Shown in pieces: positions 9,307 through 46,509 of a stretch of DNA of 53,991 nucleotides. The stretch covers positions 1 through 53,991 of the forward strand of contig PFCG01000029.1 of the NCBI GenBank assembly GCA_002773095.1, read 5' to 3'. Source of the DNA: Candidatus Moranbacteria bacterium CG10_big_fil_rev_8_21_14_0_10_35_21. Lineage in GTDB: Bacteria > Patescibacteriota > Minisyncoccia > Moranbacterales > UBA2206. Positions within the stretch are counted from its first letter, which is position 1; each line of letters begins with the position of its first letter. The position numbers and the translations under genes were made by a program. Below the pieces are notes generated by a model that saw only the letters and a program-made list of their open reading frames with translations, had not been told where the DNA came from and searched no databases.

Positions 9307-9322
9307 TTATATCCAAAAAATT

Positions 9323-9503
9323 TCAGCCTTACGAAAGACTCAGGAACAAATTCAGCTGAAACGAGCGTTAAAAAAAACTCCTCACCAATTCAGCCATGGG
9401 CTGACTAGGAGTTTTAGCGAGTGAGGCTTTGAATTTGTCTGAGACTGAGTCCGGCTGACAGTTTTCTTTGCAACTTTCTTTTGCTACCAAAAGAAAGTTG
9501 AGA
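9323..9503. repeat. composite palindromic repeat, copy A
   Basis: Extensive similarity to 46315-46509; nested inverted repeats plus 3' hairpin caactttcttttg/caaaagaaagttg (9471-9500). Confidence 0.8.
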
Positions 9504-14239: not shown

Positions 14240-15187
14240 TTATTTCTTCCTCCGTCTGGCATGAAAAGTTTTGTGAATGTCTCTTAATTGGCGATTGGTG
14301 ACATGAGTATAAATTTGCGTGGTTGTGATAGAGGAATGTCCTAACATAGCTTGCACACTGCGAATATCGGCTCCATTGATGAGTAAATCAGTGGCAAAGG
14401 AATGACGCAATGTGTGTGGATGGACTTCTTTGATGATTCTGGCCTTAGCTGCATAATATTTTACAATTCTCTGGATAGTACGTGGCGTTAAACGTAAACT
14501 TTTTTCTTTTTTAGTGTTTTCATTTTCCGTTCGACTTTCAAATTGTTTCAAGGCCTTCACATCTTGCACAAAAAGAGCTGGATCTATATCACTTCTTTTA
14601 TCCAAATATTTTTCCAATGATTTTTTGGCCCGATCAGAAACAAAAACTACTCGCACTTTATCACCCTTACCACGAATGCTAAATTCTTGGTTTTTTAAAT
14701 CTAATTTTTCCCGATTAATACTGACCAACTCAGAAACTCGCAAACCAGCTGAAAAAAGAAGCTCCAATATGGCTCGATCGCGTATTGATTTAAAGTCCTG
14801 ACCGGAAGCCGCGTCTATAATCCTCTCCACCTCTTCTGATTCTAAAAATTCTATTTCTCTCCGCGAGGATTTACCCACTTCCACTTTCTCGGCAGCCAAA
14901 GTCTGAATGTCTTTCTTATTGAGATACTTCAAAAAACTCCTCAAAGCAATAATATAGTAGTTTTGGGTGTTTTTCTTCAGAGCTTTTCCCTCTTTTTCTC
15001 CCAACCGATTGAGAAAAATGCGATAATCCCGAACTAGGGCTTCAGTTATCTTTTCCGGTTGAGAAACCTTGGCCCAATCCAAAAAGCGATCCAAATAATG
15101 GTTATAATTTTCATTAGTTTTCCGGGATCGACCCTTTTCGATTTCCAGATATTCCAGATATTGACTTTTGAGCTTTCTGAGATCCAT
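14240..15187 (-). CDS. tyrosine recombinase XerC/XerD family
   Basis: SAM-like N-terminal domain, LLFSAGLRVSELVSI, HPHTLRHSFATDLL, LGHSSITTTQIYTHV. Confidence 0.93.
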   Translation of the reverse strand: MDLRKLKSQYLEYLEIEKGRSRKTNENYNHYLDRFLDWAKVSQPEKITEALVRDYRIFLNRLGEKEGKALKKNTQNYYIIALRSFLKYLNKKDIQTLAAEKVEVGKSSRREIEFLESEEVERIIDAASGQDFKSIRDRAILELLFSAGLRVSELVSINREKLDLKNQEFSIRGKGDKVRVVFVSDRAKKSLEKYLDKRSDIDPALFVQDVKALKQFESRTENENTKKEKSLRLTPRTIQRIVKYYAAKARIIKEVHPHTLRHSFATDLLINGADIRSVQAMLGHSSITTTQIYTHVTNRQLRDIHKTFHARRRKK

Positions 15188-19560: not shown

Positions 19561-19649
19561 TGTCATCCTGAACTTGATTCAGGATCTAATTACAAAACTA
19601 GTGATTACACTAAAACTCTATTAGATTCCGGATCAAGTCCGGAATGACA
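19561..19649. mobile_element. 89-bp MITE-like element with about 30-bp terminal inverted repeats related to those of the GIY-YIG element
   Basis: tgtcatcctgaacttgattcaggatctaat (19561-19590) versus attagattccggatcaagtccggaatgaca (19620-19649); 24/30 matches in inverted orientation. Confidence 0.8.
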
Positions 19650-27374: not shown

Positions 27375-27389
27375 TCCGCCTTTGGCGGA
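27375..27389. repeat. small palindrome TCCGCC-TTT-GGCGGA
   Basis: Same unit as 46392-46406 and (CCCGCC variant) 50591-50605. Confidence 0.7.
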
Positions 27390-28410: not shown

Positions 28411-28758
28411 TGTCATCCTGAACTTGTTTCAGGATCTCAAAAACATGAAACAATATTGCGTTTACATCAACACAAATAAAAATAATACAACTCTTTATAT
28501 CGGGGTGACTAATAATTTACCAAGGAGAATGTATGAGCATAAAAATAAAATAACTAAGGGTTTTACAGCAAAATATAATGTTAATAAATTAGTATACTTT
28601 GAGCAAACTGAAAATATATTGAGCGCCATTCAAAGGGAAAAACAGCTAAAAAATTGGCATAGGGAATGGAAAATAAATCTTATTAATAGTATTAATCCAA
28701 AATTGGAAGATCTAAATAAATCTTTATTAGAAGATCCTGAAACAAGTTCAGGATGACA
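28411..28758 (+). mobile_element. GIY-YIG element bounded by perfect 27-bp inverted repeats
   Basis: tgtcatcctgaacttgtttcaggatct (28411-28437) and its exact reverse complement agatcctgaaacaagttcaggatgaca (28732-28758). Confidence 0.85.
28445..28756 (+). CDS. single-domain GIY-YIG endonuclease
   Basis: YCVYINTNKNNTTLYIGVTNNLPRRMYEHKN...KLVYFEQTENILSAIQREKQLKNWHREWKINLI; stop codon inside the right repeat. Confidence 0.9.
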   Translation: MKQYCVYINTNKNNTTLYIGVTNNLPRRMYEHKNKITKGFTAKYNVNKLVYFEQTENILSAIQREKQLKNWHREWKINLINSINPKLEDLNKSLLEDPETSSG

Positions 28759-46275: not shown

Positions 46276-46314
46276 TCTAAAACTAAACAATCAGCCTATA
46301 TTCAATTAAGTTCT

Positions 46315-46509
46315 TCAGCCTTACGCAGTCTCAGCTATGAATCCAGCTGAAACGAGCGTTTAGAAACTCCTCACCGATTCAGCCATATTTATCCGCCTAT
46401 GGCGGAGGCTGACTTGGAGTTTTGGCGAGTAAAGTTAGGATTCATCTGAGACGGAGTTTGGCTGAGAGTTCTTTTTGTTTACTTTTTCTTGCGGAAAGAA
46501 AAAGTAAGA
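46315..46509. repeat. composite palindromic repeat, copy B, with nested hairpin
   Basis: Similar to 9323-9503; nested TCCGCC-TAT-GGCGGA (46392-46406) in the central loop. Confidence 0.8.

What the first reader, a model, noticed from the sequence alone, without database searches (positions are those of the whole stretch)
46315..46509. Copy B of the composite repeat shows compensatory stem changes relative to copy A
The stem that is acaaattca/tgaatttgt in A is atgaatcc/ggattcat in B. The 3' hairpin is caactttcttttg/caaaagaaagttg in A and ttactttttctt/aagaaaaagtaa in B. Both sides changed together, which is direct evidence that base pairing is being maintained. Copy B sits between convergent genes.
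Basis: seen in the sequence. Interest (0 to 1): 0.7.

Follow-up and report, generated by a model that had tools for sequence, protein, structure and literature searches.

The report
Mobile hairpin repeat with triplex tail
The feature is one copy of a roughly 190-base non-coding DNA repeat that spreads between genes in a group of tiny uncultured bacteria and keeps its folded shape while its letters change, including a tail that appears built to form a three-stranded helix.

Summary
In detail: copy B (46314-46508) and copy A (9322-9500) share one fold and both stems changed on both sides. I recovered about 184 copies. On a 35-copy alignment the structure passes a covariation test: 91% of cells paired against 76% shuffled and about 50% slid; 30 of 40 pairs carry two-sided changes.

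It is a dispersed intergenic element of Candidatus Moranbacteria, found in 44 of 132 genomes of the order and patchily elsewhere in Patescibacteria, in up to 23 or more copies per genome. Sites are occupied in some sister species and empty in others, resident elements are overwritten or nested, and close copies form head-to-head pairs (24 of 26). It is therefore a non-autonomous mobile repeat (YPAL/ERIC/REP-like), not a known Rfam RNA.

An unexpected addition: the linker before the 3' hairpin mirrors the hairpin's pyrimidine arm. The C position in the linker tracks the G in the purine arm in parallel register (r = 0.74 and 0.85; 0 of 5,000 permutations): three-way covariation for an intrastrand triple helix. 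A similar tail, in outward-facing pairs, is repeated on Paraburkholderia megaplasmids. The mobilising enzyme is unknown, and RNA versus single-stranded DNA is unresolved.

The parts
46314..46508 (+). copy B of the element (head TTCAGCC, tail GTAAG)
   Evidence: 156.8 bits with model R1
46315..46320 (+). outer stem P1, 5' side (TCAGCC; partner 46460-46465)
   Evidence: covarying across copies
46460..46465 (+). outer stem P1, 3' side (GGCTGA)
46438..46445 (+). stem P3 3' side GGATTCAT
46353..46356 (+). CGAG: tandem G.A step facing CGAG at 46426-46429; replaced by Watson-Crick pairs in other copies
   Evidence: alignment A2 cols 48-49/121-122
46426..46429 (+). CGAG, other side of the tandem G.A step
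46392..46406 (.). TCCGCCTATGGCGGA, a separate small palindromic repeat nested in the apical loop of copy B
46469..46476 (+). linker tract TTCTTTTT, candidate third (Hoogsteen) strand, parallel match to AAGAAAAA at 46496-46503
46479..46490 (+). tail hairpin, pyrimidine arm TTACTTTTTCTT
46495..46507 (+). tail hairpin, purine arm AAAGAAAAAGTAA
9322..9500 (+). copy A of the element
   Evidence: 142.3 bits
9346..9354 (+). copy A stem P3 5' side ACAAATTCA (partner 9430-9438)
9430..9438 (+). copy A stem P3 3' side TGAATTTGT
9462..9469 (+). copy A linker tract TTTTCTTT, parallel match to AAAAGAAA at 9489-9496
9471..9500 (+). copy A tail hairpin CAACTTTCTTTTG / CAAAAGAAAGTTG

Best explanation
Copy B is one member of a family of about 180-200-nt, protein-less, dispersed mobile repeats of Moranbacteria and other Patescibacteria. 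Each unit is a long imperfect hairpin of about 150 nt with a variable, often nested apical loop. It is followed by a pyrimidine linker and a pyrimidine/purine tail hairpin. The + strand (tail at the 3' end) is the strand that folds. Shown: structure conserved by covariation, multi-copy dispersal, orthologous filled and empty sites, nesting and overwriting, intergenic placement mostly at gene 3' ends, and head-to-head pairing. Inferred: the folded strand, as single-stranded DNA or transcript, is what an unidentified enzyme supplied in trans recognises, and the tail closes into a Y-motif triple helix (T.A-T and C+.G-C) that marks or protects the 3' end.
For: Covariation. Copies: 9 matches to model R1 in the own genome including fragments, 20 of 35 family genomes, 44 of 132 order genomes, and about nine other Patescibacteria genomes at E up to 1e-5. 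Mobility: two adjacent genes lie 3 nt apart in G018 but have elements between them in G019, G020 and G021; at two other sites sister species carry type 1, type 2 or nothing; close copies (94-96% identical) sit at unrelated loci with similarity ending near the element ends. Nesting: type 2 units between type 1 head and tail remnants. Pairs: about 24 head-to-head, 2 tail-to-tail, none direct within about 75 nt, in several genera. Strand: G.U 36 against A.C 12 in big-hairpin pairs predicted on both strands (58 against 14 on the + structure). Triplex rule.
Against: No mobilising gene was identified. Y1/REP transposase (PF01797) occurs in 17 of 20 element-bearing against 7 of 15 element-free family genomes, but is absent from G019 (23 copies) and from the window's own genome; loci of that gene are not clearly enriched for the element. 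Reverse transcriptases show no clear relation. No clean target-site duplication was found, partly because occupied sites are layered. Transcription, triplex formation and transposition are not observed. Relatedness of copies inflates permutation tests.
Confidence: 0.72

Rival explanations
1. The element is a structured non-coding RNA of the host, for example a small regulatory RNA with a triple-helical 3' end like ENE/MALAT1 ends, duplicated many times.
For: Strong covariation, G.U excess on one strand, tail topology (third strand, Watson-Crick strand, loop, purine strand at the 3' end); Y-motif triplexes can form in RNA according to PMC4666352.
Against: No Rfam family; 0 to 23 or more copies per genome, absent from many relatives, replaced by other subtypes at the same site, no promoter-like site in copy B's region.
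Confidence: 0.15
2. The element is a transcription terminator or mRNA 3'-end structure kept at gene ends.
For: Sits mostly at gene 3' ends (65 of 93 scored gene flanks are stops); 14 of 36 tails lie 2-9 nt from a stop; GC-rich stem base followed by a T-rich linker.
Against: One search finds no terminator-like site in copy B; the tail hairpin is not followed by T's in the other direction; copy A follows a separate GC hairpin downstream of the S1-domain gene; many relatives lack it at the same place.
Confidence: 0.1
3. The mirror match between linker and tail is a by-product of A/T-rich low complexity or of subtype inheritance, not a triplex.
For: Tracts are T-rich; subtypes are shared by descent; exact equality of T/A run lengths depends on how loop-closing A's are counted.
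Against: Parallel register correlates (r 0.67-0.89) while the Watson-Crick antiparallel register does not (r -0.13 to -0.40); permutation within strata of the second run length still gives 0 of 5000 for agreement within one base; CTCTTTTT/GAGAAAAA and TTCCTTTT/AAGGAAAA add C and G together; tracts without C face arms without internal G.
Confidence: 0.2

Closest known systems
YPAL / RU-2 (Yersinia palindromic sequence, about 168 bp) and ERIC/IRU
   Same: Short, protein-less, intergenic, long stem-loop, scattered copies with filled and empty sites; YPAL targets lie at or beside dyad symmetry, it has internal inverted repeats and no TA ends (PMC2229807).
   Different: No sequence relation was tested; this family adds a second tail hairpin with a triplex-compatible linker, outward-tailed head-to-head pairs, and extreme stem divergence under covariation.
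REP / BIME / REPIN moved by TnpA-REP (RAYT)
   Same: Imperfect palindromes in alternating orientation; strand-specific single-strand hairpins are the substrate there (PMC8266576, PMC2817692).
   Different: REPs are 20-40 nt with a GTAG-type foot; this is about 190 nt without it, and PF01797 is missing from genomes that carry the element.
PIT / BoxC / TM_ECO intrastrand triplex repeats
   Same: Multi-copy intergenic repeats built as three consecutive triplex-forming blocks; the tail here is class IV (Y motif) on the + strand, which reads as class II on the other strand (PMC4666352).
   Different: TM_ECO is G/C-rich, about 37 nt and described alone; here the motif is A/T-rich, is the tail of a 190-nt covarying element, and the third strand changes in step with both arms.
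ENE / MALAT1 3'-end RNA triple helices (also in plant transposons)
   Same: Third strand, then Watson-Crick U-rich strand, loop, A-rich strand at the 3' end; in Arabidopsis an ENE raises retrotransposon RNA stability (PMC12501189).
   Different: Eukaryotic; needs a poly(A) or A-rich end; no transcript is known here.

Membership tests
REP/RAYT (REPtron) | 20-40 nt palindrome with GTAG-like foot | tested here: not met
   Element is about 190 nt; consensus head TTCAGCC, no GTAG foot
REP/RAYT (REPtron) | cognate Y1 transposase in the same genome, flanked by the repeat | tested here: not met
   PF01797 absent from own genome and from G019; 20 such loci gave few elements
MITE of a DDE insertion sequence | terminal inverted repeats of an IS | tested here: inconclusive
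   Head-to-head pairs have outward tails like inverted ends, but single units are commoner and no parent IS was found
MITE of a DDE insertion sequence | target-site duplication | tested here: inconclusive
   No constant duplication beside head and tail; sites layered
YPAL/RU-2-like palindromic mobile element | short protein-less intergenic stem-loop with filled and empty orthologous sites | tested here: met
YPAL/RU-2-like palindromic mobile element | insertion at or next to dyad symmetry | tested here: inconclusive
   Simple GC hairpins within 50 nt upstream of the head: 12/110 against 2/80 at 500-550 nt, but gene ends carry hairpins anyway
Intrastrand triplex (PIT) motif, class IV | Hoogsteen, pyrimidine, purine blocks in 5'-3' order with parallel third strand | tested here: met
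   sequence rule held across 144 copies, 28 distinct tract+arm strings
Intrastrand triplex (PIT) motif, class IV | triplex actually forms | not testable with these tools
   needs CD, NMR or melting
Rfam RNA family | score above a family's gathering threshold | tested here: not met
Intrinsic terminator | GC stem directly followed by T run | tested here: not met
   0 sites in copies A and B regions; T tract begins several nt after the stem
Integron attC site | RYYYAAC and GTTRRRY boxes at the hairpin ends | tested here: not met
   ends are TTCAGCC / GGCTGAGAG; boxes absent from the ends of the consensus

The most novel reading that the evidence does not exclude
A previously undescribed class of bacterial mobile repeat whose substrate is a strand-specific fold ending in a selected Y-motif triple helix. 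It is shared across distant phyla: the same kind of tail occurs in outward-facing pairs on Paraburkholderia megaplasmids, and after a long hairpin in Pseudoalteromonas. The triple helix would be the recognition or 3'-end protection signal for mobility.
Probability: 0.33. Interest if true: 0.82.

Novelty: new variant of a known kind. Interest (0 to 1): 0.62.

Why it matters
Bacterial intrastrand-triplex repeats have been listed for years; the survey paper read here reports their abundance but no test that the third strand is under selection. Here the third strand changes in step with both arms of the hairpin in many copies. If it holds, folding of a three-stranded tail becomes directly testable in a mobile repeat, and a large repeat family of uncultured Patescibacteria, absent from Rfam, gets an anatomy and a searchable model. 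The head-to-head outward-tail layout repeated in Burkholderiaceae hints at a shared transposition logic whose enzyme is still to be found.

Tried and rejected
Rfam at gathering and permissive thresholds gave only chance hits. Y1 transposase and reverse transcriptase families were not convincingly linked. Three viral-contig pattern scans gave none, so there is no sign of phage carriage. The linker pairing with the purine arm by Watson-Crick (antiparallel) was tested and does not explain the register. A possible larger terminus carrying TAATACGTATTA was seen beyond the tail of only a few copies, so it is not a general end. G015 at the type-1 site first looked like a virgin empty site but reads as a deletion scar keeping ATTCGGCC and TAAGG. 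Literature searches for this sequence or for repeats in Moranbacteria gave nothing relevant; most subscription papers are not in the library. Two matches in the phylum search (L136, L141) fold poorly and look false.

Full report
Observation. Both stems reported for copies A and B are in the sequence at the stated places. Copy B spans 46314-46508, copy A 9322-9500. B lies between convergent genes, the right one an O-antigen ligase; A lies between an S1-domain protein gene and a guanylate kinase gene. Each folds much better than shuffled sequence.

Copies. The window is contig C20 of a 753-kb genome. That genome holds further copies on C12, C31 and C5, one copy on C11 that lost its middle between GCTGA direct repeats, and pieces on C19. 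A BLAST of copy B in 35 genomes of the same family found it in 15, with the 3' segment mostly 92-98% identical across genera. A named-genome pattern scan puts the identifiable hosts mainly in Candidatus Moranbacteria (Moraniibacteriota), with others named only as Patescibacteria or unclassified bacterial MAGs.

Covariation. An alignment of 35 copies less than about 90% identical gives 40 consensus pairs, 30 with two-sided compensated changes. Against controls: 91.0% cells paired (shuffled 75.6, slid 33-52), 256 compensated cells (shuffled 80, slid 50-61), score 0.474 (shuffled 0.193, slid 0.07-0.13), with 0 of 500 shuffles reaching any of these three. In an all-against-all G test with APC, 15 of the 40 structure pairs exceed the 99.9th percentile of 14,190 non-structure pairs, and several 'near' pairs are probably further real pairs such as 45-125 and 49-121. 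At columns 48-49/121-122 a tandem G.A step (CGAG/CGAG) alternates with Watson-Crick pairs. The tail hairpin exists in 40 forms in 111 copies, nearly all with a pyrimidine-rich 5' arm and purine-rich 3' arm.

Which strand. Among big-hairpin pairs predicted independently on both strands, G.U outnumbers A.C 36 to 12 on the + strand, so the strand with the tail at its 3' end is probably the one under selection to fold. This does not separate RNA from single-stranded DNA.

Distribution. Covariance model R1 finds 20 of 35 genomes in the family, 44 of 132 in the order, and about nine of the remaining genomes in a 381-genome sample of the phylum, the last with the same two-part architecture. Counts per genome run from 0 to 23 or more and are lower bounds.

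Mobility. In G018 two genes are separated by only 3 nt (TAAATTATG), where G019, G020 and G021 carry one or more elements. At two other places, sister species carry a type 1 element, a type 2 element, or none. Type 2 units are found between a type 1 head and a type 1 tail, and type 1 tails are followed by type 2 tail remnants, so elements land on and overwrite one another. Near-identical copies occur at unrelated loci with similarity ending close to the element ends. No constant target duplication was seen.

Placement. Flanking genes more often present their 3' end to the element than their 5' end (tail side 36 to 12, head side 29 to 16), and 14 of 36 tail-to-stop distances are 2-9 nt. ORFs were called by length only, so these numbers are approximate. 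When two copies lie within about 75 nt they are almost always head to head: about 24 head-to-head, 2 tail-to-tail, none direct, across several genera and two families (counted by hand from the listed coordinates). Some of the pairs within one genus may be inherited.

Triplex tail. The linker between big hairpin and tail is a mirror image of the tail's pyrimidine arm, which makes it the parallel Hoogsteen complement of the purine arm: B TTCTTTTT with AAGAAAAA, A TTTTCTTT with AAAAGAAA. The covariation scan flagged linker columns 163-164 with tail columns 189 and 199 before this was noticed. In 184 copies, 92 distinct linker-tail combinations, 62 have a single C in the tract; the T runs before and after the C track the A runs before and after the G (r 0.74 and 0.85; both equal in 50% against 13% permuted; 0 of 5000). 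The opposite, Watson-Crick register is near its permuted value. Counting loop-closing A's into the arm, 28 distinct strings agree within one base in 96% against 69% permuted, also within strata of the second run length (0 of 5000), although exact equality is then not significant (36% against 26%). Copies with an added C have an added G; most copies without C have no internal G and matching lengths. The simplest reading is a selected Y-motif triple helix, class IV in the nomenclature of PMC4666352; the other strand would read as class II. Copies with a small GC palindrome inserted in the linker break it, so it is not essential for persistence of every copy.

Beyond Patescibacteria. The type 2 tail matches about 40 or more places per megaplasmid in Paraburkholderia, and single places in Burkholderia and Pseudoalteromonas plasmid records. 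In 300 kb of a P. caribensis megaplasmid, 6 of 7 loci are outward-facing pairs 463-466 nt apart, and in Pseudoalteromonas the tail follows a long hairpin in three repeats about 748 nt apart. Whether this is descent, transfer or convergence was not settled; the tail is A/T-rich and short.

Mechanism. Most likely a non-autonomous mobile element moved in trans through a folded single strand, like REP or YPAL elements. The enzyme was not found: Y1 transposases are missing from several genomes with the element, one of them the window's own, and reverse transcriptases do not track it. A stable host RNA and a terminator are less likely, given turnover and the failed terminator scan.

Noticed in passing
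window 46392-46406; also 27375-27389: A separate small palindromic repeat TCCGCCTATGGCGGA is nested in the apical loop of copy B and occurs alone elsewhere in the genome (contigs C5, C7, C11, C13, C29), once close to a tRNA gene-like stretch on C7.
   Followed up: partly
window 19563-19586, 28413-28436, 28733-28756: A third dispersed palindrome, TCATCCTGAACTTGATTCAGGATC, occurs three times in the window.
   Followed up: no
NZ_CP013104.1 1-300000 (L319-L324); L315; L318: Paraburkholderia megaplasmids carry outward-facing inverted pairs of the same kind of triplex-type tail, 463-466 nt apart, with about 98% identical tails.
   Followed up: partly
L317 560-2310 (Pseudoalteromonas piscicida): Three direct repeats with about 748-nt period, each a long hairpin followed by linker and triplex-type tail; units about 90% identical.
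   Followed up: partly
L086, L160, L197, L070, L192 downstream of tails: A few copies in genus g15 have a further conserved stretch GGAGTAT..ATTATAATACGTATTA beyond the tail, possibly an extra terminus or another repeat.
   Followed up: partly
L235 (G015:C13, about 14,372-14,386): An apparent deletion scar keeps only the element's head (ATTCGGCC) and tail end (TAAGG), suggesting excision or slippage between ends.
   Followed up: no
window 46291-46296: TCAGCC occurs again about 23 nt upstream of the head of copy B, possibly the remnant head of an earlier element.
   Followed up: no
genus g18 and others: Weak RAYT-like Y1 transposases (about 200-250 aa) are common in the family, including genomes with no element; their own cognate repeats were not identified.
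   Followed up: no
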